Positions 39,368-51,648 of a stretch of 56,279 bases of DNA are shown here, in pieces. Source of the DNA: Actinomycetes bacterium (GTDB taxonomy: Bacteria; Actinomycetota; Acidimicrobiia; Acidimicrobiales; Poriferisodalaceae); the NCBI GenBank assembly GCA_024228575.1, contig JAAETH010000467.1, positions 1-56,279 of the forward strand. The letters run 5' to 3'. The first letter of the stretch is position 1, and every line of letters starts with the position of its first letter. The notes under the pieces were generated by a model that saw nothing but the letters and a program-made list of their open reading frames with translations, had not been told where the DNA came from and ran no database searches. The position numbers were made by a program, and so were the translations under genes.

Positions 39368-40294
39368 CTATTCGGTGACAAAATCGATGAGGCGCTCGAC
39401 CGAATTGATGAGGCTGACATCGAGATCGGTGAACGATTCGACCTGGCCGACGACACGTCGCCAGAATGCGGGTGGCTCACCGACGCCCAGTGCATCGCAG
39501 ATTCCCGTCTTCCAGTCGGTGCCCATGGGCACCCGCGGCCACGCCTCGATGCCGACGACCTGGGGCTTGACGGCCTCCCACACATCGACGAATGGGTGGC
39601 CGAGCACCAGCACGTGCGACTGATCGACCGCGGCGGCGATTCGTGCCTCCTTGGTGCCTTCGATCATGTGGTCGAGGAGAACTCCGAGCCGACGGGTGTG
39701 TCCTGGCTGGAACTCGGCAATCATCGCCGCCAGATCGTCGGCTCCATGCATGGGCTCGACCACAACACCTACATGGCGCAGGTCGTCGCCCCAGATCTTC
39801 TCGATCAGCTCGGCGTCGTGTACGCCTTCGACCCAGATGCGCGCGGCCCGAGCGACCTTGGCCTTGACCGTCGGAGCGCTGACCGATCCCGAGCGTGTTG
39901 TTGCCGGCGCCACGGGGGCGATCTTGGGTTGGACAAGCGATACGTTGCGTCCGTCGATCCGGAAGGCTCCGGGAAGTCGGCGGTGAGTGCTGATCCGTCC
40001 GTCGGCAAGCCTCAGCTTGACCGCTGACGACGAGACCGAGATGACATGGCCGCGCCTGCCACTCGCGTTGTGCCACACGACCAGATCCCTGGTCGCCGCG
40101 ACCTCGGGATATGACGACGGATGTCGCCGGCGGAAATCGTCGACGCTGCCGGCGAGGATGCCAGAGGTCTTCCATCGAGGTGTTTGTGTCCTGGCCACAG
40201 ATGCTGAAGGTACCGAACCCTCGATTCCGAAGGGGGTTTGTCCGACAGGGACTGAAAGTGGCGAGTCCATCACGTCAGGTGGGTGTTTCGTCAC
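39368..40294 (-). CDS. DUF3097 family protein
   Basis: A 308-residue protein of the actinobacterial DUF3097 family. Typical features are the N-terminal beta domain (DLVVWHNASGRRGHVISVS) and the central block WVEGVHDAELIEKIWGDDLR, followed by VVVEPMHGADDL and HVLVLGHPFVDVWEAVKP, which resemble a Toprim-like arrangement (EGxxDAE and D-x-D-type segments). The function is not established. ATG 40294 or the internal ATG 40270 could be the start. It is divergent from the large secreted protein gene, with 122 bases or so between them. Confidence 0.85.
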   Translation of the reverse strand: MTKHPPDVMDSPLSVPVGQTPFGIEGSVPSASVARTQTPRWKTSGILAGSVDDFRRRHPSSYPEVAATRDLVVWHNASGRRGHVISVSSSAVKLRLADGRISTHRRLPGAFRIDGRNVSLVQPKIAPVAPATTRSGSVSAPTVKAKVARAARIWVEGVHDAELIEKIWGDDLRHVGVVVEPMHGADDLAAMIAEFQPGHTRRLGVLLDHMIEGTKEARIAAAVDQSHVLVLGHPFVDVWEAVKPQVVGIEAWPRVPMGTDWKTGICDALGVGEPPAFWRRVVGQVESFTDLDVSLINSVERLIDFVTE

Positions 40295-40416
40295 AAACAG
40301 GATTCACATACCCACGCTCTGTGCGCTACCGACAGATACTGGCTCTCCTTCAGAAGCCGGCTGGATCGACAGCACAGTCTCTAGCAACACACCCTCGACC
40401 AGCAAGGTATGACCCC

Positions 40417-43197
40417 GTGGACCACAAGTCGGTGAAACGCATGATCAGGGTGGGTGTTGTCCTCACCGCTCTAGCCGCGGTGGGACTCATCGCCGTCGGC
40501 CAATCGGGCTCTGGCGCGAACGGCGCACAGAGCCTCCAAAACGCCGACGTTCGCACCGACACTCCCGTCGCCACCGATGGGCGCGCCTATGCGGGAACCC
40601 AAAGGGGCGACCGCATCGTCGTCGGAGGAACGTTCACCTCGCTTGAACCCGACGAGGGTAAGACGGCCATCTCTCAGGCGTACCTCTATGTCTACGACGT
40701 CAACTCGGGCGACCTCGATCCCAACCAGTTCACCCTCGACAACCGGGTCAGCGTGGTGATCCCAGCGTCAGAGGACGATGCTGTGTTCGTCGGTGGCAGG
40801 TTCACCGATATCGGTGGCACGACCAGGCAGAAGCTGGCCAAGATCGATCTCGACGCTGGCACGGTCATCACCGAGTTCGTCGCCCACACCGACGGCCAGG
40901 TCAAGGACCTGGTGTTGGTCGGTGACACCCTGTTCCTGACGGGTGGATTCACCCAGGTGAACAGCGTCGAACGTCTCGGGCTCGCCGCTGTTGATGCGAC
41001 CACCGGTGCCGTCAGAACCGACTTCGACTTCCCGCTGACGACCTACATCGGCCAGGTCGACGGAGCGATCGGGCAACGATTGGGCACCACGCCAGACGAT
41101 CAGACGCTTGTCGTGATGCATCGCGGCAAGTTCGTCGACGGTCTCGATCATCGAGGGATAGCGATGATCGACATCGCTGCAACACCCGCTCTGCTGCCGT
41201 GGCGAACCGACTTCTGGGACTCCACCACGGTCATCTCCATCGTCGACGGCGAGGTTTCCCCCGACGGCACCTACCTCGTCGTCGGAGGGGGTTGGGGTGA
41301 TAGTCCGCCCTGGCGCGACACTGCGGTCGCCTTCCCCGTTACTGGGGGACCCGATACCGACCCTCTCTGGGTGACACGAAACCACGACTCCACATTTGCC
41401 GTCGCTATCGACGACAACGCCGTCTACATCGGTGGTCATTTCTGCTGGACCGAGGGCCCGACGACCCCAGAACCGTGGGGCAACCCGCCCTCGGGGAGTT
41501 GCCCGAACAAGACTCGAAATGACCCGACGGAGGTCTACCGCGACACGTTTGCCGCACTCGACCCCACGACCGGCAAGGCCATCAAGTACGCGCCGGACTC
41601 CGACGCTCGCAACGGGATTCGTAGCATCGAGATCGTCCCTGCTGGCATGCTGGTCGGTGGTGACCAGACGTGGACGGCCGACGTCAGGACCGGACGGTCC
41701 GCTCTGTTCGACATCGCAGAAGCCCGCGAGGATCTCGCCCTGTCGGGAACGGCGACCCACTCGTCGAGTTGGGGTGGCCACGAGCCCGAAAGAGCCATCG
41801 ACGGCAATCGCGACAGACATCTCTTCAGCCACACGATCGCCGCGACCAACTCCGAGGCCCAGCCGTGGTGGAGCGTCGACCTCGGTGAGGTGAAGCCGGT
41901 CTCGACCATCTCGTTGTGGACCCGCAGCGACTGCTGCTTGAGCGAATTCTCCGATGTGTGGGTCTTCACAAGCGAGCAGCCTTTCGCAAGCGACAACCCA
42001 GCGATCCTGTCGCAAGACCCCAACGTGGTGTCGACGTTCCTCGCCGGGTCGCAGGACCGCATGACCTCGGTCGACTCGTGGACCGACGCAAGGTATGTCA
42101 GGGTCCAGCTCGACGGGACCGGCCAGCTGTTCTTGTCCGAGGTCTCGGTCTATCTCGACACGGGCATCGGAGGTCCAGACGCAACACCTCCATCCGCCAC
42201 CTTCGACTCGCCCGCGGATGGAGGCGAGGTACAGGCTCCCATCCGTCTGGTTGGCACCGCGAGCGACAACCAGTCGGTCGACGGGATCCTTGTCGAGGTT
42301 CAGAACCGCGACACGAGCAGCTGGCTACGCTTCGACGGCTCCTGGGGGAGCTGGCAGCAGCAGTTTGCGACCATGGCCGGGCCAGGAGCCACGAGCACGG
42401 ATTGGACGTTCGACATCGCCGCGGCCGTTCCAGGCCGCTACAAGGCCTCGGTTCGAGCCGTCGACGCCGCCGGGAACTCCCACGACCTGATGACGGTCAA
42501 GTTCGAGGTGGTGGGTGGCGGTGCCACACCTGCGTCTGTCACGATCAGCTCCCCCCAGGACGACGAGCTCATCGCCGGGTCGAGTCTGAACGCCGTGGGA
42601 ACCGCAACCGACGCTGTTGAGGTGGGGGCGGTCAAGGTGTCGGTTCGCGATCGCAGCACGGACCTGTGGCTGCACTCCGACGGCTCGTTCGGGTCGTGGC
42701 AGGACCACGAGGCAACCCTCGCCACGCCGGGCGCAGCGAGCACCGATTGGACATTCAGCAGCGCCCTTGCGGCTGGTTCGTACAAGTTGTTCGTGACAGT
42801 CATCGACGCCGAAGGTGTAGCGGCTTCGGAAACCACCGCCAAGTTTGTGGTCGGCGCCGACGACGAGGTGCCCACGGTGACCGTGACATCTCCGACACTC
42901 GATCAACAGGTTCCGGTCGGAATGGTCGACCTCGCAGGAACCGCAACGGACAACACGTCTGTGGTCCAGGTCGAGTTCGCCCTGCGAGATCGGGTCTCCA
43001 AGCAGTGGCTGCAACCCGACGGCACGTGGGGTTCGTGGACCCGGCTCGAGGCAATCCCGAGCAACCAAGGGACACAGCTGAGCGGCTGGTCGTATCAGCA
43101 GAACCTGCCAGCCGGCAGCTACAAGATGTACGTGATCTCATACGACCAGGCCGGCAACGAAAGCGCCGAGTTCATCTGGACGTTTGCCGTCGCGTGA
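40417..43197 (+). CDS. Large secreted protein: beta-propeller-like, discoidin-like and three Ig-like repeats
   Basis: A 926-residue exported protein. It has a signal peptide (KRMIRVGVVLTALAAVGLIA). Residues about 40-430 form repeated WD/PQQ-like blades (VGGTFTSLEP, VGGRFTDIGG, LTGGFTQVNS, IGGHFCWTEG). Residues about 441-580 are a discoidin/F5/8C-like domain (ALSGTATHSSSWGGHEPERA). From 588 there are three tandem Ig-like repeats about 115 residues apart, each containing a WL-x-x-DG-(S/T)-(W/F)-GSW motif. GTG 40417 is preceded by AAGGT at good spacing; GTG 40432 and ATG 40441 are alternatives. It probably binds carbohydrate or a surface polymer; no enzyme active site is evident. It ends 11 bases before a convergent gene. 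Confidence 0.8.
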   Translation: MDHKSVKRMIRVGVVLTALAAVGLIAVGQSGSGANGAQSLQNADVRTDTPVATDGRAYAGTQRGDRIVVGGTFTSLEPDEGKTAISQAYLYVYDVNSGDLDPNQFTLDNRVSVVIPASEDDAVFVGGRFTDIGGTTRQKLAKIDLDAGTVITEFVAHTDGQVKDLVLVGDTLFLTGGFTQVNSVERLGLAAVDATTGAVRTDFDFPLTTYIGQVDGAIGQRLGTTPDDQTLVVMHRGKFVDGLDHRGIAMIDIAATPALLPWRTDFWDSTTVISIVDGEVSPDGTYLVVGGGWGDSPPWRDTAVAFPVTGGPDTDPLWVTRNHDSTFAVAIDDNAVYIGGHFCWTEGPTTPEPWGNPPSGSCPNKTRNDPTEVYRDTFAALDPTTGKAIKYAPDSDARNGIRSIEIVPAGMLVGGDQTWTADVRTGRSALFDIAEAREDLALSGTATHSSSWGGHEPERAIDGNRDRHLFSHTIAATNSEAQPWWSVDLGEVKPVSTISLWTRSDCCLSEFSDVWVFTSEQPFASDNPAILSQDPNVVSTFLAGSQDRMTSVDSWTDARYVRVQLDGTGQLFLSEVSVYLDTGIGGPDATPPSATFDSPADGGEVQAPIRLVGTASDNQSVDGILVEVQNRDTSSWLRFDGSWGSWQQQFATMAGPGATSTDWTFDIAAAVPGRYKASVRAVDAAGNSHDLMTVKFEVVGGGATPASVTISSPQDDELIAGSSLNAVGTATDAVEVGAVKVSVRDRSTDLWLHSDGSFGSWQDHEATLATPGAASTDWTFSSALAAGSYKLFVTVIDAEGVAASETTAKFVVGADDEVPTVTVTSPTLDQQVPVGMVDLAGTATDNTSVVQVEFALRDRVSKQWLQPDGTWGSWTRLEAIPSNQGTQLSGWSYQQNLPAGSYKMYVISYDQAGNESAEFIWTFAVA
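42182..43190 (+). repeat. Three in-gene Ig-like repeats
   Basis: The 3' third of the secreted protein gene encodes three homologous modules starting near 42182, 42530 and 42870. Each ends in a WTF-type strand and carries WLRFDGSWGSW, WLHSDGSFGSW or WLQPDGTWGSW. They are protein-level repeats with diverged DNA. Confidence 0.8.
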
Positions 43198-43208
43198 CCC
43201 GGCCTAGG

Positions 43209-44066
43209 TCAGGTTCGGGCTGCGATCACATCGTGGACCGCCAGGACCAGGCGGGCATTGTCGACGTGCAGGTTCTCGATCATGCGGCCGTCGACCGTGC
43301 ACACACCACGGCCCTCGGCCTGGGCCTCGGTGAACGCCTCGATGACGCGACGGGCATAGCCGACATCGTCCGCGGTCGGCGACCACACCCGGTTGCACGG
43401 TTCGAGCTGGGCGGGATGGATGAGGGTCTTGCCGTCGAAACCCATCTGCCATCCCTGAACACACTCGTCCTCGAATCCAACTGCGTCCTTGACATCGTTG
43501 AACACACCGTCGAGTGCGCTGATGCCATGACGGCGGGCTGCCAGTAGTGCGGAGGCAAGGTGGGGGACCAGAGGGACCCGTCCCGGTATCAGCTGGGCTC
43601 GCAGCTCCTTGGCCATGTCGTTGGTGCCCATCACAAAACAATCGACCCGGGGGTGGGCCGCGATCTCATCCGCGTTGACGATGCCGTCCGGTGTTTCGAT
43701 CATCGCCCAGACCTTGACGTTGCTCGACGCCGCAGCGCGGTCCATCACCGCGGTGATCTCGTCGACGTGTGCGGCCGAGGCCACTTTCGGGATGACGATG
43801 GCTGAGGGTCCGGCTGCACTGGCAGCTGCGACGTCGTCGGTTCCCCACGGAGTGTCGAGACCATTGCACCGAATGGTCAGCTCGCGGTGGCCGTAGGAGC
43901 CCGAGCGAACAGCTGCGACCGCCTGCTCGCGTGCTATCGGCTTCGAATCGGGGGCGACTGCATCTTCGAGATCGAAGATGAGGGCGTCGGCATCGAGTCC
44001 GGCGGCCTTCTCGAGAGCTCGCGAGTTGGCTGCCGGCATGTACAGAACGGAACGTCGGACCTTCAT
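43209..44066 (-). CDS. CitE/HpcH-HpaI aldolase family protein (malyl-CoA thioesterase/lyase-like)
   Basis: A 285-residue CitE-like TIM barrel. Motifs: RRSVLYMPAANSRALEKA, the acidic FDLEDAVAPDSK (metal/CoA site), the catalytic Arg-containing RCNGLDTPWGTDD, IVIPKVASAAHV, MIETPDGIVNADEI with the metal Glu, and GFDGKTLIHPAQL. Family members cleave citryl-CoA, malyl-CoA, citramalyl-CoA or hydrolyse malyl-CoA. It follows a closely related malyl-CoA lyase-like gene by 39 bases on the same strand, an arrangement like the mcl1/mcl2 pair of the ethylmalonyl-CoA pathway, where the second gene is a (3S)-malyl-CoA thioesterase. Which activity it has is inferred, not shown. Confidence 0.85.
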   Translation of the reverse strand: MKVRRSVLYMPAANSRALEKAAGLDADALIFDLEDAVAPDSKPIAREQAVAAVRSGSYGHRELTIRCNGLDTPWGTDDVAAASAAGPSAIVIPKVASAAHVDEITAVMDRAAASSNVKVWAMIETPDGIVNADEIAAHPRVDCFVMGTNDMAKELRAQLIPGRVPLVPHLASALLAARRHGISALDGVFNDVKDAVGFEDECVQGWQMGFDGKTLIHPAQLEPCNRVWSPTADDVGYARRVIEAFTEAQAEGRGVCTVDGRMIENLHVDNARLVLAVHDVIAART

Positions 44067-44105
44067 GGGTGACTCTTCCTCGTCGTTGTGTGAGGGGCGG
44101 ATTGA

Positions 44106-45158
44106 TCAGGCGGTGAAGCCGTAGAGGGCGGCGAGCTCGGGGTCTCGCTCAGACAGCTGGCGGGCCAGGCCCATGACGACGTGGCACTGCTTGACCGACG
44201 CATCGTCCTCCATCTTGCCGTCGAGCATGAGGGCGCCCGTGCCGTCACCCATCGCCTCGATGACCCTCCGGGCGTGTTCGACCTCGGCCAGGTCCGGTGA
44301 GAAGACCCGCTTGGCGATGTCGATCTGGCTCGGGTGAAGGCTCCAGGCCCCAACGCAGCCGAGCAGGTATGCGTTGCGGAACTGATCCTCGCACGCAACG
44401 CCGTCGGCGATGTCGCCGAAAGGGCCGTAGAACGCCAAGATGCCGTGGGCGACACACGCATCGACCATACGAGCGAGCGTGTAGTGCCATAGGTCCTGTT
44501 GTGCCGTGAGGCGAGGAGCGTCGGCATCTTCTCCGGGATCGGCCCTGACGAGATATCCCGGGTGGCCACCACCGACTCTGGTGGTCTTCATGCGCCGGTT
44601 CGCCGCGAGGTCGGCTGGGCCGAGCGACAGTCCCTGCATCCGGGGGGAAGCACCACAGATCTCTTCGACATTTGCGACGCCGCGAGCCGTCTCGAGAATG
44701 GCGTGAATACCGATCGGACGATCGAGTCCGGCCCGTGCTTCGAGCTGGGCGACAAGGCGATCGACGTAGTGAATGTCTTCGGGACCCTCGACCTTTGGAA
44801 CCATGATGACGTCGATGCCACCTTCGGCCTCGACCACCGCCGCGACCATGTCGTCGAGGCACCACGGCGAGTCGAGACTGTTGACGCGGGTCCAGAGCTG
44901 GGTTTCGCCCTTGTCGAGGGTGCGCGCCACATGGACCATGCCGGCCCTGGCGGCTTCCTTGTCGCCGGCGGGCACACCATCCTCGAGGTTCGCCAGCAAT
45001 ATGTCGACCTTTGGTGCGAGATCTGGGAGTTTGGAGACCACCTTCTCGTTTGATGCCGGGAAGAAGTGGATCATCCTCGAGGGGCGGACGGGAACCTCGC
45101 GAAGCGGCTCGGGAGCACCTAGGGCGAGTGGGAGGAAGAAGTCCTTCGGGGGGCGCAT
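44106..45158 (-). CDS. L-malyl-CoA/beta-methylmalyl-CoA lyase-like protein
   Basis: A 350-residue CitE superfamily lyase that is strikingly like Mcl of Chloroflexus and proteobacteria: [121 protein letters not shown], and [19 protein letters not shown]. Mcl splits malyl-CoA to glyoxylate and acetyl-CoA, or methylmalyl-CoA to glyoxylate and propionyl-CoA. The metal-binding Glu and Asp and the catalytic Arg lie in the intact motifs above. It suggests an ethylmalonyl-CoA or partial 3-hydroxypropionate-type pathway; the missing partners are not in this window. Confidence 0.88.
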
Positions 45159-45215
45159 GGCACTTCCTTCTTTGGGGATCGTTGGAGTGGGGCAATGGTT
45201 GGCCCAGAGACGGGC

Positions 45216-45228
45216 AACCTGTCAGGTT
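45216..45228. promoter_or_regulatory. Perfect 13-bp palindrome upstream of the malyl-CoA lyase gene
   Basis: AACCTGTCAGGTT is perfectly symmetric around one T. It lies in the 136-base gap upstream of the malyl-CoA lyase start (45158) and downstream of the PAP2 gene stop (45295). The size and position suit a TetR- or GntR-type repressor operator; no regulator gene is adjacent. Confidence 0.4.
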
Positions 45229-45294
45229 AGAACCCCAGGACGGGCCGGAGCCACCCGATGATTCCCCACTCGAGACGCATACAAGGGCGCCGAC

Positions 45295-46131
45295 TCAGCG
45301 AGCTATTCGTGTGGCCCGTTCGCGCCACACGATCAGACCCAGTGCCGACAGCGAGATCGCTACCCCGAGCACAACGTCGACGAGGTAGTGGTTGCCTGTG
45401 ATGACGACGACCGCAGCCATCAGAACCGCTGGAAGAACCAACAATACCTTGGCCAGATGACTCCGCAGAAGGGGGAACAAGAGCACCGCACTGAGCGCCA
45501 TCCAACCGACGTGGAAACTCGGCAAGGCCGCGTTCTCGTTGATGAGCCAGCTGGGGTGCGCGATGTAGTTGTGCCTGGCCGCCTCGTTGACCGTGTCGAC
45601 ATATCCCGACAGGAACCGCGGCGGGGCGACAGGAAACATCGCGAAGACCACAAGACCGACGAGGCCGGACGCGAACAGGGCGTTGCGGTAGCGCCGGAAG
45701 AGTGCCCTGTGGCTGAGCCATGTGTACAAGAGGGTGGCGATGATGACGGGCCAGTAGGCAAACGAGTAGATCCAGTTTGCGACCGAGACCACCCACTCGT
45801 AGTCGAGTGCCACCTGCTGGATGTCGGCCTCCCACTCGAACCCGAGAGCACGCTCGAATTCGAGCAGTCGGCCCGCATTGCGTGCGGCCGAGGTGGCAGA
45901 TCCTGCTGTGACGGCACGAACGCCGAGATAGGCCCCGAGGCCGCCGACCAGGACGAGGACATTGCGAACGATGGTGGTGATCGACCGGCCGTTGGAGGCC
46001 GCGGCCTCTTCGACCGGATCGATGGCGTCGGGTTGTGCTGCATCGACCGCGATGTCGGGCTGATCGGCCTCGATGTCGAACGCGCGCGAACGCAGCGTGC
46101 CTTCGTGGTTTGGTTCGATCGACCAGGCCAT
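45295..46131 (-). CDS. PAP2 superfamily membrane protein (inositolphosphotransferase-like)
   Basis: A 278-residue integral membrane protein. An acidic cytoplasmic N-terminus (about 1-45) is followed by six or so membrane segments. The PAP2 motifs are PSFHVGW (His at about 190) and GNHYLVDVVLG (His at about 233), giving the two catalytic His. The order and spacing resemble the PAP2_3/AUR1-type family, which handles inositol phospholipids in actinobacteria. A phosphatase or phosphotransferase acting on a lipid phosphate is likely; the substrate is unknown. It is 37 bases downstream of the selenoprotein-like gene on the same strand and may be cotranscribed. Confidence 0.85.
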   Translation of the reverse strand: MAWSIEPNHEGTLRSRAFDIEADQPDIAVDAAQPDAIDPVEEAAASNGRSITTIVRNVLVLVGGLGAYLGVRAVTAGSATSAARNAGRLLEFERALGFEWEADIQQVALDYEWVVSVANWIYSFAYWPVIIATLLYTWLSHRALFRRYRNALFASGLVGLVVFAMFPVAPPRFLSGYVDTVNEAARHNYIAHPSWLINENAALPSFHVGWMALSAVLLFPLLRSHLAKVLLVLPAVLMAAVVVITGNHYLVDVVLGVAISLSALGLIVWRERATRIAR

Positions 46132-46168
46132 GACAGTTGCGGCCCCTCCTGGTGCGGATTTGGTTTGA

Positions 46169-46780
46169 TCAGGGTCGAGGTCCGAAGTCGGGCCGTTCGG
46201 TGCGAGTTCGCTTCAGCTCCCAGAATCCGGGGACGGTGCTGATCATAATCAGACCATCCCACAGATCGAGGGATGATTGGGTGTCGGGTACGCGGGTTAT
46301 GACGGGCCCGAAATAGCCAACGCGCTCGCCGAGCGAGTTGTCGAAGGTGATGATCGGTGTGCCGATGTCGTCGCCCGCGAGGGCGAGCCCCTCGTTCATC
46401 GCGTCCTCGATGACGGGATCCCACGTCGCGGCGTCGTCCATCGCCGAGGCGTAGGCCACGTCGAGCCCTGCTGCCTCGAGAAGATCCTCCGTTGTCAGAT
46501 CGTCGCGTCGGCCATCGTGGTGGATCTGGCGGCCACACTCCCAATAGAACGCCTGGGCCGCCTCGTTTCCTTCCGCAGCCTTGATGGCCTCGAACACCCG
46601 CAGCAGCTGGTGTGTCTTGTAGACAGGCGAGTCGGTGTCGTCGATCTCGTTCTTGAAGTAGAGGCTGATCGACTTCCAGTTGATCTCGAGCTCGCGCTCG
46701 GGAGCAACTTCATCGACGACCCAACGGGCCGTCACCCAGCACCACGGTCATATCGGATCGATGTAGAAGTCGACCTGCAT
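46169..46780 (-). CDS. Probable selenoprotein: DsbA/Rv2466c-like oxidoreductase with UPWC active site
   Basis: A 203-residue thioredoxin-fold protein of the DsbA/mycothiol-dependent nitroreductase (Rv2466c) family. Conventional calling starts it at GTG 46735 and loses the active site. Reading upstream in frame gives MQVDFYIDPI, a TGA (46748-46750), then PWCWVTARWVVDEV. This aligns with FWFDPLCPWCWITSRW of Rv2466c, so the TGA falls exactly on the first Cys of C-P-W-C; residue 11 would be selenocysteine and Cys14 the resolving Cys. The C-terminus keeps IGTPIITFD, GYFGPVI and FWELKRTRTERP. Weak AAAGG precedes the ATG at 46780. A hairpin at 46716-46732 fits a bacterial SECIS. The alternative is a nonsense mutation in a Cys codon; a sequencing error is also possible. 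Confidence 0.85.
46716..46732 (-). promoter_or_regulatory. Candidate bacterial SECIS hairpin
   Basis: On the minus-strand mRNA, ACGGCCC and GGGTCGT pair (7 bp with one G-U) around loop GTT, starting 15 bases after the in-frame UGA. The loop is 22 bases from the UGA and its first base is G. This meets the usual bSECIS description: loop 16-37 bases downstream of UGA, with a G in the first two loop positions. Confidence 0.6.
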
Positions 46781-46936
46781 GGAGCTTCGAACCTTTCACC
46801 CCGAGAAACACTTCCACCGGCGGCGAAAGCCCGCTCGAACTCTACCGAACGAGGAGCACTATTCAGCGTCGCGCCGGAACGCTGTTCCACCGGCATCAAC
46901 TGAGCCCGAGGCAGCACGATTTGACACACTGGGTAC

Positions 46937-47458
46937 ATGCAACCGCTGATCGACCGGCCCTTCACGAGTCGCTGGTCGCGAGCCAAGCCTTGGATGTTGC
47001 CTGTCGTGTTGTCGCTTGTTGTCCTGGCCGCGATTTTTGTGGGTGTGACCTTCGTCGTGTTCGACATGGTCACGGTGCCAGACGACGCAAACCGCGAGAA
47101 GATCTCCAAGGGTGACCACATCATGGTCAACACTCGCTCGACTGTCGATCTGGGCGAGCTGATCGTTTTCGAACGTCCTGGGGCCGACACGATCTCGATC
47201 GGTAGGGTCGTTGCTGCAGGTGCAGACCTGGTTCAGGTCGGTGAGGGTGGGCTGTTGTTGAACGGTGTTCCGGTTGCAGAGCCCTACCTTCTGGGCGACG
47301 ACCCCGGTCCGCCGATCGACCCGTTCAGCGTCCCGGATGGCTCCGTGTTCGTCCTCGCCGACGACCGGCGTCATCAGGCGATCGAGACGATGGGCCTCGT
47401 GCCTCTCGACCTCGTCGTCGGGACGGTGTCGTTTCGGTTCTGGCCCCTGGGTGGCTGA
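46937..47458 (+). CDS. Signal peptidase I homologue lacking the catalytic Ser and Lys (pseudo-peptidase)
   Basis: A 173-residue S26 signal peptidase-like protein with one N-terminal membrane helix (about 21-44) and an external beta domain. In LepB, box B is PSGSM-x-PTL-x-x-GD. Here the aligned positions from Pro to Gly-Asp keep the same spacing (VPDDANREKISKGD), but the catalytic Ser is Ala. In box D the general-base Lys of K-R is Gly (ISIGRVV). Box E GDNR reads ADDR. Other LepB features remain: GELIVFERP, LLLNGVPVAEPYL, VPDGSVFVLADDR, FRFWPLG. So it is probably a catalytically dead signal peptidase with a binding or regulatory role (inference). It is divergent from the selenoprotein gene. 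Confidence 0.82.
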   Translation: MQPLIDRPFTSRWSRAKPWMLPVVLSLVVLAAIFVGVTFVVFDMVTVPDDANREKISKGDHIMVNTRSTVDLGELIVFERPGADTISIGRVVAAGADLVQVGEGGLLLNGVPVAEPYLLGDDPGPPIDPFSVPDGSVFVLADDRRHQAIETMGLVPLDLVVGTVSFRFWPLGG

Positions 47459-47480
47459 CCCCACAATTCTCAGCAGCACC

Positions 47481-49160
47481 TCAGCTGGAGCACGAGAGTG
47501 TGGAGCAGCCAGCCCTTGTGCGGGCCCACTCGGGTCGCTTGGAGGCGTACTCGTCCATGCCGGGCTGCTCGTCATAGGGGTGTCGTACCAGCTCGAGAAG
47601 CCGCTCCACCTCGCTGAAATCGCCCTCGTGCGCCTTGTCGATCGCCACCTGTGCAAGGTGGTTGCGTAGCACGAACTTCGGGTTCGAGGCGTTCATCGAG
47701 GCCCTTCGTTCTGCTGGCTCTCGACCCGTCGATGACACCCGTTCGTGCCAGAGCTCAATCCAAGAGACGGTCGCTTCGACATCGTCGCGCGACCACTCCT
47801 CTGGCCGATAGATCGCAGGCCCCATGACGTCGGCAATGGCTCGGGACTCGCCGATCGCAGCGTCGAGAGCGGCACTGCCAAGGGCGCGGAAGAAGATCGT
47901 CATGTCGGTCTCGACGCGCTGCAGCAAGGAGAAGCAGGTGTCGGCCAGCTCGGCGTCGCCGGGGAGCTCCTCGCCCAGACCGAGCTTGGCTTGGACGGCC
48001 GATCGCCAATGTGATTGGTAGACGTCGACATATCCGTCGAGAGCGGCGGTGACACGCTCGACATCGTCGACGAGTGGGAAGATCGCGTTGGCGAACTGCA
48101 TCAGATTCCAATGGGCGACCTGGGGTTGCTGGGCGAAGCGATAGCGCCTGTGCGAGAAGTCGGTCGTGTTCGGTGTCCAGTTCGGATCGAAGTCGTCGAT
48201 CCAACCGTATGGCCCATAGTCGATGGTCTCGCCGAGAATCGACATGTTGTCGGTGTTCATGACGCCATGAACAAAACCGACACGCATCCACTCGGCCATC
48301 AGCCGTGCCGTGCGGTCGCGGACCTCGACGAACCAGGCGAGGTACTGATCCGGACCGATCTGGGCGGGAGAGGCCGAACCCGACCCGTCGAGCAGGTGGG
48401 GAAAGTGCTGTGTGATGGTGTGGACGGCGATCTTGCGAAGCAGTCCGACGTCGTGGCGCGACGCGGGCAACTCGAAGCTTCCGAACCGCACGAATGTGGG
48501 GGAGACACGACACACGATGGCGCCTGGCTCCATCTGCACATTCCCGTCGTAGAACATGTCGCGAGCCACATACTCGCCGGTGGTGACGAGGCTCAGTGCT
48601 CTGGTCGTCGGGATTCGGAGATGGTGCATCGCTTCACTGCACAAGAACTCGCGAATCGACGAGCGCAGCACGGCGAGCCCGTCCGCGGTTCGGCTGTATG
48701 GGGTCGGACCGGCACCCTTCAGCTGAAGCATCTGGGTGCCCGCGAGGTGCGTCGAGACCTCGCCAAGGGAAATGGCTCTCCCGTCGCCCAGCTGGCCGGC
48801 CCAGTTGCCGAACTGGTGGCCGGCGTAGGCCATGGCGAAGGGTTCACTGCCCTCGAGAACGTGGTTGCCGGCCATGACCTCGACGAACAACGGGTCGGAT
48901 GCTGCCTCCGACCCGAGATCGAGCATTTCGGCTACCTCACGGCTGTGAGCCACCAGCCTTGGTTCATCGACCTTGGCTGGAGAAACGAACGAATAGGCAG
49001 CCCCGTGAACCTGTCGGCGGCCGTTGTGTTCGTTCGCGTCGCCGGGAAGCGACTCGGTGAACGGGTTTGTGAACCGCCACCCGGTCACGCTGGAGAGTGG
49101 GTCGGCTTGAACCGGCGCGTCGGAATGGACCGGGTCGCGCGAGTCGCTCGCTTGACTCAT
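47481..49160 (-). CDS. selO: SelO/YdiU family protein adenylyltransferase (pseudokinase fold)
   Basis: A 559-residue SelO-family protein. Family members have a kinase-like fold but transfer AMP from ATP to Ser, Thr or Tyr of proteins, in redox-linked stress responses. Motifs: FAMAYAGHQFGNWAGQLGDGRAISLGE-type block, ATP-binding QLKGAGPTPYSRTADG, SSIREFLCSEAMHHLRIPTTR, GFVHGVMNTDNMSILGETID, and DYGPYGWIDDFDP (metal). The C-terminus is GCSTLSCSS: Cys557 is third from the end, where eukaryotic SelO has selenocysteine; Cys552 can be the partner. The terminal TGA follows normally, so this is the Cys form. ATG 49160 overlaps the stop of the Fic-like gene (ATGA), so synthesis is coupled. Confidence 0.93.
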   Translation of the reverse strand: MSQASDSRDPVHSDAPVQADPLSSVTGWRFTNPFTESLPGDANEHNGRRQVHGAAYSFVSPAKVDEPRLVAHSREVAEMLDLGSEAASDPLFVEVMAGNHVLEGSEPFAMAYAGHQFGNWAGQLGDGRAISLGEVSTHLAGTQMLQLKGAGPTPYSRTADGLAVLRSSIREFLCSEAMHHLRIPTTRALSLVTTGEYVARDMFYDGNVQMEPGAIVCRVSPTFVRFGSFELPASRHDVGLLRKIAVHTITQHFPHLLDGSGSASPAQIGPDQYLAWFVEVRDRTARLMAEWMRVGFVHGVMNTDNMSILGETIDYGPYGWIDDFDPNWTPNTTDFSHRRYRFAQQPQVAHWNLMQFANAIFPLVDDVERVTAALDGYVDVYQSHWRSAVQAKLGLGEELPGDAELADTCFSLLQRVETDMTIFFRALGSAALDAAIGESRAIADVMGPAIYRPEEWSRDDVEATVSWIELWHERVSSTGREPAERRASMNASNPKFVLRNHLAQVAIDKAHEGDFSEVERLLELVRHPYDEQPGMDEYASKRPEWARTRAGCSTLSCSS

Positions 49161-50320
49161 GCGTGCAGGCTAGCGGTGACTCCCCCGTGAGCCGGTCGAC
49201 GGGCCGCGGTGCTCAACACATCGTGGAGTGCGACAACCTCGCCCTTCAGAATCGCCCTGCGCTTGGCCGCTTCATAGTCGGCGGTCAGGTTCCGGGGAAC
49301 GATCATCGGAGTGCCACCCAGGTCGCTCAGCTCCGTGTTCATCAGCAAGAGGGCGACCTCCTCCGTCGCATCGGCGAAGGGGTCGACCAGCAGCACCACG
49401 AACAGAACACCGACAGAACGGGCGAGCGCCTCGGGGATTGTGGCCGTCATCGCGAACCCGGCCCGCAGCATTACCTCGACATCGTCGGCGGCGACGAACT
49501 CGAGGCTCGGAAGCCGGTTGGGGCCACCCCGCCAGGCGCCGGGATCGGTAGCACACACGGTCGTGTGAAGCGCTCGCAACATGTCGATCAGTTCGTCCGC
49601 TGTCGATCCGACGTGGACGTCCGCCCCCGACCAGTCGGGGTCACCTCCGAGACTTCGCACCGCCCCGGCGATCGCCAACACGGCACGATGGTCGGCGGGG
49701 ATCTCGGCGGCGGTGAAGTCGATACCGAAGAGTGCGGCGACATCGGCAGCGTCGACGACATCGTCACCTTGTGCAATCGTCATCGCCTTCTGAGCAATCT
49801 GATCCGCGTCCTCACCCCAGAGCGTGACATTGTCCTTGGCCCACCACTGCATTTCGGTCTGGGTGAGAGTGCGGGGCACACGACCCTTCACCGATCTCGA
49901 GACCTTCATGTTGTCGACGATGGTGCGCGAAGGCGATGACATCTGGAGGCCGTAGACCCACTCGAAGTCGTCATCCATCCTCTCGAGTGGGCGGACCAGC
50001 ACGGTCACCCCGGGCAGGTCGAGGTGCGACTTCCGTTCGTCCGTTGAAACGACAATGATCCCATCGACCACCTCACCCCCACAGCTTGCGGTGCGGTCGA
50101 CGACGACTCCGTCCGGCATCAGGAACCCGACGATCTGCCAGATGTTCCTCTCGACGAGCTCGCCCGCGGGCGTTTCGAGATCGGCGGTGTAGATGTGGCT
50201 GGCCAGGCGGCGGATTCGTCCAGCGTTGACCCCGCGACGCAGCGTCGGTGCCGATGCCACATCGTCGAAGAACACCGTGCCGTACGCCGTCGGCCAGGGG
50301 GAACTGAGTGGTCGAGCCAT
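49157..50320 (-). CDS. AbiEi-like/degenerate Fic protein, catalytic motif lost
   Basis: A 387-residue protein. The N-terminal part resembles AbiEi antitoxins or the winged-helix N-terminus seen in front of actinobacterial Fic domains: NAGRIRRLASHIYTADL, PDGVVVDRTA, SSPSRTIVDNMKVSRSVKG. The C-terminal half follows a Fic fold, ending LLLMNTELSDLGGTPMIVP, then RNLTADYEAAKRRAI. Where Fic enzymes have HPF-x-D-GNGR, the sequence reads DPFADATEE: His to Asp and the G-N-G-R anion loop to A-T-E-E, so AMP transfer is very unlikely. GAGGAG precedes the ATG at 50320. It is translationally coupled to selO (ATGA), suggesting the pseudo-Fic guides or regulates SelO (inference). Confidence 0.8.
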   Translation of the reverse strand: MARPLSSPWPTAYGTVFFDDVASAPTLRRGVNAGRIRRLASHIYTADLETPAGELVERNIWQIVGFLMPDGVVVDRTASCGGEVVDGIIVVSTDERKSHLDLPGVTVLVRPLERMDDDFEWVYGLQMSSPSRTIVDNMKVSRSVKGRVPRTLTQTEMQWWAKDNVTLWGEDADQIAQKAMTIAQGDDVVDAADVAALFGIDFTAAEIPADHRAVLAIAGAVRSLGGDPDWSGADVHVGSTADELIDMLRALHTTVCATDPGAWRGGPNRLPSLEFVAADDVEVMLRAGFAMTATIPEALARSVGVLFVVLLVDPFADATEEVALLLMNTELSDLGGTPMIVPRNLTADYEAAKRRAILKGEVVALHDVLSTAARRPAHGGVTASLHA

Positions 50321-50412
50321 GGGAACTCCTCCTCGGGTTTGTTTCCCTTTCTTCGAGGTATGTCGTCCGTGCAGCACTACGAAACAGCAGTTCTGTTCAG
50401 AAGACCTCGTGC

Positions 50413-51648
50413 ATGGCTCGATTCGTGCCCAAGATCAACCTGATGTACAACGGCGGGGTGAAACAGGACTCCCCGAGTCGCGAGCGCTCGGCGGCGGTCG
50501 TGATCATCACCATCATGGCGTGCGCCGCGGTCGCCCAGGCCTTTGGCCGCTTCACCTGGGGGGTGGTTCTGCCCGACGCTCGCGACGACGTGCTCGGCGG
50601 ATCGAACACAGTCGCTGGCCTGATGGGCACGTTGAACGTGACCGCGTACCTGCTGGGCACCCTTGGTGCAGCGTTCTTCGCATCCAAGATCTCGCTGACC
50701 AACCTGTTGCGACGCGGGCTCATCCTGTCGACGACCGGCCTCTTGACCATGTGGCTGGTACCCGTTCCTGGCGTCATGGGAGTGGCACTGTTCTTGATGG
50801 GTTTCGGTGGCGCCATGATCTGGATCCCTTCACCCGCCCTCGCCGCCAGACAACTACCCGCTCACCGCAAGGCCTTCGCCGCCGGACTCGTCGGATCCGG
50901 GATCGGCATCGGCATCGTCTTCACGGGCCAGCTGGCCGCTTGGATGCGCGACGATGCCAAACCCGACACCTGGAAGCAGGTCTACGGAGTTGAGGCTGTC
51001 ATCGGCCTGCTGGCGCTGGTCGGCGCCCTCGTGATTCTCCAGTCACGCGGCGAGACCGTCTCGGCCCGCGGTGGCCTCGGCGGATTCCAGGCCCTGCGCC
51101 GGGTCGAAGGCTGGGCCCCACTGTCCGCCTGCTACACGGCCTATGGGTTCGCCTACCTGCTCGCCATCGCCTTCCTCGTGGCTCGCCTGGAAGACGACTC
51201 CGGCCTCTCGTCGGGCACGGCGTCTGCGGCGTTTTCCCTCATGGGGTTTGCGACGATCGTCGGCGGCCTGTCCGTCGGGTTCTTCGTCAGCCGGTTCGGT
51301 GTTCGGCGGACGCTGATGACCGGCTCGGGTGTCTTCGGAGCGAGCACATTGCTGGTATTGGTCGGCTCCAGCCCCTGGATCTGGTTCGCCGCCGCTGGTC
51401 TGGGCCTGATGTTCTCGACCGTTCCCGCCTCGATCGCCACCCACATCGTTCAACATGCCTCCGACGAGGACTATGGCCCCGCCTATTCCGCCGCCACACT
51501 CGCGTTCGGATTCGCCCAGATGCTGGCTCCACAGCTCGGCGGTGTCATCGCGGACGCCGCGGGCAGCTTCGCCCCGGTGTTTGTTCTCTCTGCCGGATTC
51601 TCGGCCGCGGGCGTGATCGCCGCATGGAAGCTCCCCAGACACACGTGA
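50413..51648 (+). CDS. MFS transporter (YbfB/YjiJ-like)
   Basis: A 411-residue MFS permease with about 12 membrane segments. It resembles the YbfB/YjiJ or OxlT-like part of the family: GRFTWGVVLPDARDDV at the first helix, LTNLLRRGLILSTTG, and GFGGAMIWIPSPALAARQLP. The start is uncertain (ATG 50413, ATG 50443 or GTG 50458); AGAAG sits before the first. The substrate is unknown. It is divergent from the AbiEi/Fic gene, separated by 92 bases holding both starts. Confidence 0.83.
   Translation: MARFVPKINLMYNGGVKQDSPSRERSAAVVIITIMACAAVAQAFGRFTWGVVLPDARDDVLGGSNTVAGLMGTLNVTAYLLGTLGAAFFASKISLTNLLRRGLILSTTGLLTMWLVPVPGVMGVALFLMGFGGAMIWIPSPALAARQLPAHRKAFAAGLVGSGIGIGIVFTGQLAAWMRDDAKPDTWKQVYGVEAVIGLLALVGALVILQSRGETVSARGGLGGFQALRRVEGWAPLSACYTAYGFAYLLAIAFLVARLEDDSGLSSGTASAAFSLMGFATIVGGLSVGFFVSRFGVRRTLMTGSGVFGASTLLVLVGSSPWIWFAAAGLGLMFSTVPASIATHIVQHASDEDYGPAYSAATLAFGFAQMLAPQLGGVIADAAGSFAPVFVLSAGFSAAGVIAAWKLPRHT

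What the first reader, a model, noticed from the sequence alone, without database searches (positions are those of the whole stretch)
46937..47458. Signal peptidase I homologue with both catalytic residues replaced
Box B keeps the Pro-to-GlyAsp spacing but has Ala for the nucleophilic Ser; box D has Gly for the Lys base; box E has ADDR for GDNR. The fold-defining remainder (VPDGSVFVLADDR, LLLNGVPV-type, fwP end) is retained. A conserved pseudo-peptidase could hold pre-proteins or act as an inhibitor or chaperone for export.
Basis: seen in the sequence. Interest (0 to 1): 0.6.

Follow-up and report, generated by a model that had tools for sequence, protein, structure and literature searches.

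The report
Catalytically dead signal peptidase homologue
This gene encodes a membrane-anchored relative of the enzyme that trims exported proteins, but it has lost both catalytic residues while keeping the fold, and two related bacteria keep the same kind of dead copy beside an intact enzyme, so it probably binds exported proteins rather than cutting them.

Summary
Window 46937..47458 (+) encodes a 173-aa signal peptidase I (S26) homologue with Ala at the nucleophile, Gly at the general base, and ADDR in place of GDNR. No shift of the alignment restores a Ser/Lys pair. Two orthologues were found in the 39 held genomes of its family (49% and 39% identity). Both have Gly at the base position; one still has Ser at the nucleophile, the other Gly. 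All three replace the Gly next to the catalytic Lys and share residues (Asp, Asn, Thr, Gly) at four positions that do not vary in 32 intact relatives. All three genomes keep an intact Ser/Lys LepB. The predicted structure is one transmembrane helix plus the signal peptidase fold. Its closest solved structure is Streptococcus pyogenes SipA, another dead signal peptidase with Gly for Lys, needed for pilus assembly. No pilin or sortase was recognised among eight neighbouring proteins. Best reading: a lineage-specific pseudo-peptidase acting as a non-catalytic binder of exported proteins. The loss of catalysis is well supported; the binding role is inferred. It evolves about eight times faster than LepB. 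It is a new member of a known kind. Its divergent neighbour is a strong selenoprotein candidate.

The parts
46937..47458 (+). Catalytically dead signal peptidase I homologue, 173 aa (end includes stop)
   Evidence: ORF; Pfam PF10502 and NCBIfam TIGR02227 above cut-off; orthologues in G001 and G008
46970..47059 (+). Single N-terminal transmembrane helix (residues 12-41) after a short N-terminus with Arg and Lys
   Evidence: AlphaFold2 model helix 12-41, mean pLDDT of model 85.7; that it spans the membrane and the orientation are inferred (positive-inside rule)
47075..47092 (+). Box B, residues 47-52 VPDDAN: Ala at the nucleophile; Asp49 and Asn52, at otherwise invariant Ser and Met positions, are shared by all three orthologues
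47198..47209 (+). Box D, residues 88-91 IGRV: Gly at the Lys general base (Gly in 3 of 3 orthologues, Lys in 32 of 32 intact SPases)
47357..47374 (+). Box E, residues 141-146 ADDRRH: Ala for the Gly that packs on the catalytic Lys; the following Ser is lost
   Evidence: role of the Gly from PMC4049620 (passages)
46169..46780 (-). Divergent neighbour: Rv2466c-like oxidoreductase with an in-frame TGA (46750..46748) at the first residue of UPWCW, candidate selenoprotein; adjacent in all three genomes, no functional link shown

Best explanation
The gene encodes a pseudo-signal-peptidase: a type I signal peptidase (S26) copy that diverged from active SPases, lost the Ser-Lys dyad and the Ser two residues before the nucleophile (an oxyanion residue, by recall), and was kept as a membrane-anchored, non-catalytic protein. 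One N-terminal helix holds the signal-peptidase beta-fold on the outer face of the membrane. Shown by computation: homology, predicted fold, loss of the dyad in three genomes, an intact LepB in the same genomes, selection on the protein sequence. Inferred: it cannot cleave; positions that line the peptide cleft in E. coli SPase by recall (window V47, I62, I88) stay hydrophobic, so it may still offer a peptide site and work by binding part of an exported or membrane protein (an assembly factor or holdase, like SipA) rather than by cutting. I put the dead-enzyme part at about 0.9 and the peptide-binding role at about 0.5.
For: Dyad loss: A51 and G89 against Ser and Lys in 32 of 32 intact SPases; orthologues S/G and G/G. 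Linked changes that fit permanent loss of the Lys: the Gly272-equivalent is A/T/A in the three, Gly in 32 of 32; the Ser88-equivalent is Asp in 3 of 3, the Met91-equivalent Asn in 3 of 3, the conserved Lys at window position 66 is Thr in 3 of 3, the box E Ser (column 309) is gapped in 3 of 3. Selection: identity 48.8% (window-G001, 170 codons), 39.0% (window-G008, 172) and 30.6% (G001-G008, 170); Nei-Gojobori dN/dS 0.47/1.55, 0.73/1.33 and 0.85/1.30 (dS near saturation). 2000 simulated neutral copies per distance reach at most 23.3% identity at 1.3 and 22.1% at 1.55 substitutions per site and stay open in 38 and 33 cases (no indels modelled). Inheritance: the three form one clade (100/96) with the same branching as the LepB paralogues of the same genomes. 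Intact LepB in G000, G001, G008. Fold: mean pLDDT 85.7; best PDB match SipA 4n31 by Foldseek (E 4.5e-8) and VIA-align (Z 16.6, 126 residues, 2.3 A). SipA has Asp/Gly for Ser/Lys, no peptidase activity and a retained cleft, and is essential for pilus polymerisation (PMC4049620: abstract, passages and part 1 of 2 of the Discussion).
Against: It evolves about eight times faster than LepB (path 2.09 against 0.26 between the window's genome and G001), so constraint is weak, and dN/dS rises to 0.66 between G001 and G008. It is found in only 3 of 39 family genomes. No client, pilin or sortase was identified beside it. The SipA authors detected no binding of SipA to pilin, sortase or peptides, and a mutation predicted to occlude the SipA cleft did not affect pilus polymerisation, which weakens the cleft-binding idea even for the model case. 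Orthologue L007 keeps a Ser at the nucleophile position. I did not inspect the model's pocket: no coordinates were in the script box (listing).
Confidence: 0.6

Rival explanations
1. A decaying duplicate: an SPase I copy that lost its catalytic residues and is drifting to a pseudogene without function.
For: Fast evolution and patchy presence: 3 of 39 family genomes; a different residue at the nucleophile in each orthologue (A, S, G); dN/dS 0.66 between G001 and G008.
Against: Open frame of nearly the same length in three genomes (173, 171, 175 aa) with pairwise identities of 48.8, 39.0 and 30.6% against at most 23.3% in neutral simulations at 1.3 substitutions per site; shared replacement residues at otherwise invariant positions.
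Confidence: 0.12
2. A regulator of secretion: it competes with LepB for preproteins, or binds LepB or the translocon, and slows processing (inhibitor or decoy).
For: Same fold and membrane anchor as LepB, present together with it in all three genomes.
Against: No direct evidence; LepB lies on another contig in each of the three genomes, so no linkage to it is seen.
Confidence: 0.15
3. A peptidase with an altered active site, for example using the conserved Asp49 or, in L007, the remaining Ser with another base.
For: Asp49 and Asn52 are the same in 3 of 3 orthologues; L007 has Ser at the nucleophile.
Against: The window and L008 have no Ser at the nucleophile (A, G) and none of the three has Lys or His at the base (G, G, G); mutating the Asp at the nucleophile position of SipA did not affect its function (PMC4049620 passages).
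Confidence: 0.05
4. A partner of the divergent selenoprotein oxidoreductase, forming a redox or export module with it.
For: The two genes are divergent neighbours in G000, G001 and G008.
Against: The oxidoreductase occurs mostly without the pseudo-peptidase: 34 of 39 family genomes have a close orthologue, 3 of 39 the pseudo-peptidase. In G009 the PAP2-like neighbour is kept but an aldolase-like ORF (by eye) lies on the divergent side. Rv2466c is cytoplasmic by recall, while the SPase domain should face outward.
Confidence: 0.08

Closest known systems
Streptococcus pyogenes SipA (PDB 4n31; PMC4049620)
   Same: Signal peptidase I fold with one membrane anchor, about the same length (its extracellular part is residues 36-173), catalytic Lys replaced by Gly, Gly272 replaced, dyad absent; best PDB match by fold and, for 2 of 3 orthologues, by sequence.
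   Different: Nucleophile position Ala/Ser/Gly here, Asp in SipA; by my register, counted back from the shared Gly-Asp, SipA has Thr, Met and Arg where these have Asp49, Asn52 and Thr66; no pilin or sortase recognised among eight neighbouring proteins; the one sortase found is on another contig; common descent neither shown nor rejected.
Staphylococcus aureus SpsA (PMC12445088, passages)
   Same: A second SPase I homologue that lacks two conserved catalytic residues, present with an active SPase.
   Different: Its sequence and neighbourhood were not compared here.
LepB of the same genome (L002)
   Same: Same family; 32.3% identity over 167 positions.
   Different: LepB keeps Ser, Lys and GDNR and is 224 aa; in the tree the pseudo clade lies outside the intact rows, with modest support (90/78, not starred).
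SipW-type (Ser-His) signal peptidases (L005, L006 in the same genome)
   Same: Signal-peptidase superfamily; L005 reaches the PF10502 cut-off, L006 does not.
   Different: They have His where the base lies (HRVV, HRIA; 'SipW-type' is my label from recall); the window protein has Gly.

Membership tests
Type I signal peptidase, S26 (as a homologous family) | Significant match to curated family models over the whole domain | tested here: met
   PF10502 63 bits, cut-off 22.9; TIGR02227 77.4 bits, cut-off 47
Type I signal peptidase, S26 (as an active enzyme) | Ser nucleophile in box B | tested here: not met
   Ala51; 32 of 32 intact relatives have Ser
Type I signal peptidase, S26 (as an active enzyme) | Lys general base in box D | tested here: not met
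   Gly89, Gly in 3 of 3 orthologues; 32 of 32 intact relatives have Lys
Type I signal peptidase, S26 (as an active enzyme) | Cleavage of preproteins | not testable with these tools
   Needs an assay
SipA (pilus assembly pseudo-SPase) | SPase fold without Ser-Lys dyad, Lys to Gly | tested here: met
   SipA residues from PMC4049620 passages
SipA (pilus assembly pseudo-SPase) | Encoded in a pilus cluster with pilin and sortase genes | tested here: not met
   Eight neighbouring proteins from 40111 to 51648 gave no sortase or pilin in NCBIfam at E 1e-5; three of the eight had no NCBIfam match (46169-46747, 49157-50377, 40111-43197). Four of the eight were also scanned with Pfam, without a sortase or pilin. 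The one sortase found in the genome is on contig C426, the window is C467. The rest of the window was not scanned for pilins.
SipA (pilus assembly pseudo-SPase) | Common descent with SipA | tested here: inconclusive
   SipA joins the pseudo clade with support 76/7.7; holding SipA with two Firmicutes SPases instead is not rejected, p-AU 0.253; long branches
SipW-type Ser-His signal peptidase | His at the base position | tested here: not met
   Gly in 3 of 3
SpsA of S. aureus | Sequence similarity and genome context | not tested
   Only review passages read

The most novel reading that the evidence does not exclude
A separate family of outward-facing pseudo-signal-peptidases in one Acidimicrobiales lineage, arisen independently of the streptococcal SipA and with its own conserved Asp-x-x-Asn motif around the former nucleophile, that acts as a receptor or assembly factor for a specific exported protein, possibly tied to the neighbouring selenocysteine oxidoreductase.
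Probability: 0.15. Interest if true: 0.6.

Novelty: new member of a known kind. Interest (0 to 1): 0.35.

Why it matters
Dead signal peptidases are described for a few Firmicutes, where one is needed for pilus assembly by an unknown mechanism. A second lineage, outside Firmicutes and without a recognised pilus cluster, with the same Lys-to-Gly change and the same release of the neighbouring Gly, would suggest that the signal peptidase fold is reused as a non-catalytic binding protein more than once, and gives a comparison set for asking which surface does the work.

Tried and rejected
Shift of the alignment to find a Ser/Lys pair: rejected, the invariant flanking residues fix the register.

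Wider orthologues: a profile of the three proteins over 397 genomes of the order, 395 of the class and 396 of the phylum, overlapping samples 'drawn evenly', gave no further member. In the order the window's own gene scores 304 bits and the next match 86.9. In the class one other genome passed the threshold (G511, 93.3 bits, L112); its ORF has SSSM, VKRVV and GDNR, an intact SPase. G001 and G008, which have the gene, do not appear in these three results, so they were not drawn; and as a rule only the best 8 or 9 first-look candidates per genome were scored. Absence outside the family is therefore weak evidence. A more divergent dead SPase scoring like an intact one would also be hidden: only the best 30 loci were fetched. 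The scan of genome contigs returned the same two orthologues (L072 = L007, L073 = L008) and two Methylophaga loci; viral contigs gave none.

Common origin with SipA: tree and AU test inconclusive, long branches. The similarity to SipA is uneven: SipA is the top PDB sequence hit for the window (44.7 bits) and L007 (43.9 bits) but fourth for L008 (21.1 bits), and for the three-row profile SpsB scores slightly better (52.3 against 50.7). The LepB paralogue matches SipA weakly (19.6 bits against 99.5 for its best hit).

Shared control region with the divergent oxidoreductase: the intergenic regions align poorly beyond the start of the oxidoreductase gene, and the one promoter-like site found lies inside the pseudo-peptidase gene on the other strand. 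SECIS by folding: energies not clearly better than shuffles (z -0.67, -1.45, 0.05).

Rows dropped: one search listed 44 distinct SPase ORFs; 34 went into alignment A3 with the window. Left out were 8 further intact SPases (L011, L013, L019, L025, L026, L027, L032, L034; Ser and Lys in all 8) and the 2 Methylophaga proteins, which have Gln for Lys and would make the Lys count 32 of 34. The script asked for a box-E-like motif and so passed over 7 SPase loci (L020, L051, L055, L057, L059, L060, L061); on a second look 7 of 7 have Ser and Lys, and GDNR was read in 6 of 7 (L020 and L059 also read). The tree uses 18 of the 32 intact rows.

Literature: the listings showed no description of a dead signal peptidase in Acidimicrobiales; only PMC4049620 (outline and abstract, passages, part 1 of 2 of the Discussion) and PMC12445088 (passages) were opened. 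For the selenoprotein neighbour, searches returned no paper, and of the 8 papers listed I opened none.

Full report
What is there. Window 46937..47458 (+) is a 173-aa ORF starting at ATG. It is a signal peptidase I (S26) homologue by two curated models: PF10502, 63 bits with cut-off 22.9, and TIGR02227, 77.4 bits with cut-off 47. In an alignment with two orthologues and 32 intact SPases from loci fetched here, the window has Ala51 for the nucleophilic Ser, Gly89 for the Lys base, and ADDR for GDNR. Ten residues invariant in all 35 rows fix the register. The 32 rows were picked by a script that asked for a box-E-like motif; seven SPase loci it had passed over also have Ser and Lys (7 of 7).

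Orthologues. A protein search of 61 genomes and a profile search of the 39 held genomes of the family found two further members: G001 (same genus, 49% identity, L007) and G008 (another genus of the family, 40%, 39%, L008). The profile scores of the three are 304, 302 and 287 bits; the next match in the 39 genomes is 87 bits. L007 and L008 appear in public records as Acidimicrobiales bacterium HKST-UBA10 and Actinomycetota bacterium M_MetaBat.222, both MAGs. Samples of 397 (order), 395 (class) and 396 (phylum) genomes gave no further member, with the limits told under Tried and rejected.

The lesion. At the nucleophile the three have A, S, G; at the base G, G, G; at the Gly that packs on the Lys (Gly272 in E. 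coli) A, T, A. The last change fits the statement in PMC4049620 (passages) that any side chain there would clash with the Lys. The Ser88-equivalent is Asp in 3 of 3, the Met91-equivalent Asn in 3 of 3, and the conserved Lys at window position 66 is Thr in 3 of 3; in 32 of 32 intact SPases these are Ser, Met and Lys. Of 45 columns identical in the three proteins, 22 match the majority residue of the intact enzymes and 23 do not. So the proteins share features of their own and are not just eroded copies. E. coli numbering other than Ser90, Lys145, Gly272 and Ser278 is my recall.

Selection and origin. The codon comparison gives dN/dS of 0.47/1.55 (window-G001), 0.73/1.33 (window-G008) and 0.85/1.30 (G001-G008) by Nei-Gojobori, near saturation. 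In 2000 simulated neutral copies per distance, identity reached at most 23.3% at 1.3 and 22.1% at 1.55 substitutions per site, and the frame stayed open in 38 and 33 copies (a simple model without indels). Observed identities are 48.8, 39.0 and 30.6%. The three form one clade (100/96) branching like their LepB paralogues, which suggests a single origin before these genomes split; whether other genera of the family lost the gene or never had it is open. The pseudo-peptidase evolves about eight times faster than LepB (path 2.09 against 0.26), so the constraint is real but weak.

Other signal peptidases in the genome. PF10502 finds four places: the LepB at C225 (IPSGSM, FIKR, GDNR), the window gene, and weak matches at C678 (over the cut-off) and C414 (below it). 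The last two have SASM/SGSM with HRVV/HRIA, which I read as SipW-type Ser-His enzymes from recall. G001 and G008 also have an intact LepB. The dead copy therefore does not leave the cell without signal peptidase.

Fold. AlphaFold2 on the 35-row alignment gives mean pLDDT 85.7, one long helix (12-41) and a beta domain. The best solved match is SipA of Streptococcus pyogenes (4n31): Foldseek E 4.5e-8, VIA-align Z 16.6 over 126 residues at 2.3 A; the next, S. aureus SpsB, has Z 14.8. The alignment given to the predictor was mostly intact SPases, which pulls the model towards that fold. SipA has Asp and Gly for Ser and Lys, no peptidase activity and a retained cleft, and is essential for pilus assembly (PMC4049620: abstract, passages, part 1 of 2 of the Discussion). 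By sequence SipA is the top PDB hit for the window and L007 but not for L008, and the three-row profile prefers SpsB slightly. Whether the two lines of dead peptidase share an ancestor is open.

Surroundings. On the minus strand, with 156 bases between, lies an Rv2466c-like oxidoreductase (PF22234, 113 bits); on the other side, convergent, a SelO/YdiU homologue. Further out are a PAP2 phosphatase-like protein and two CitE-like lyases. In G001 the next ORFs beyond the pseudo-peptidase are a chemotaxis-receptor-like protein and a SelO-like ORF (by eye), in G008 a TauD-like protein. No sortase or pilin was recognised among eight neighbouring window proteins; two of them (40111-43197, 49157-50377) stayed without any match and only the second was also tried in Pfam. 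The one sortase found in the genome is on another contig. The oxidoreductase is present in 34 of 39 family genomes at 49% identity or more while the pseudo-peptidase is in 3 of 39, so their adjacency is probably a local arrangement.

How it probably works. Shown: an SPase-like protein without a Ser-Lys dyad in any of three genomes, under weak purifying selection, kept beside an intact LepB. Inferred: the domain sits outside the membrane (short positive N-terminus, single helix) and cannot cleave. Inferred by analogy with SipA: it binds part of an exported or membrane protein and helps place or hold it. The analogy is imperfect, since the SipA authors found no in vitro binding and a mutation meant to occlude the cleft left pilus polymerisation intact. 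Alternatives are a decoy or inhibitor of LepB and a decaying duplicate.

Verdict. Dead SPase homologues are already known (SipA; SpsA per PMC12445088, passages), so this is a new member of a known kind. The conserved selenocysteine candidate next door is a separate finding, perhaps of equal interest.

Noticed in passing
window 46169..46780 (-), TGA at 46750..46748: Rv2466c-like oxidoreductase (PF22234) with an in-frame TGA at the first Cys of CPWCW (DPI-TGA-PWCW). The TGA is at that place in 30 of 30 family loci read and in L008; 34 of 39 family genomes have a close orthologue, 3 of these (G021, G005, G013) not read. The genome has a tRNA-Sec over the cut-off (66.8 bits, cut-off 47; anticodon TCA) and a SelB match over its cut-off (260.3 against 242.25) on the same contig. 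Strong selenoprotein candidate; a clear SECIS was not shown by folding.
   Followed up: partly
L074:4737-5594 and L075:4620-5480 (Methylophaga MAGs): Signal peptidase I homologues that keep Ser and Met in box B (DNSM) but have Gln for the catalytic Lys (VLQRVVA) and ADNR for GDNR: a separate half-dead SPase line outside Actinomycetota.
   Followed up: no
L005:1264-1950 and L006:1231-1920 (G000:C678 and C414): Two SipW-like signal peptidases (His at the base position), each near an ORF with AFSDT and GSVV(I/L)TDDD that resembles a TasA-type secreted substrate by recall.
   Followed up: no
window 47481..49160 (-): SelO/YdiU protein adenylyltransferase homologue (PF02696) ending in CSTLSCSS; convergent with the pseudo-peptidase, and a like ORF is near it also in G001.
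   Followed up: no
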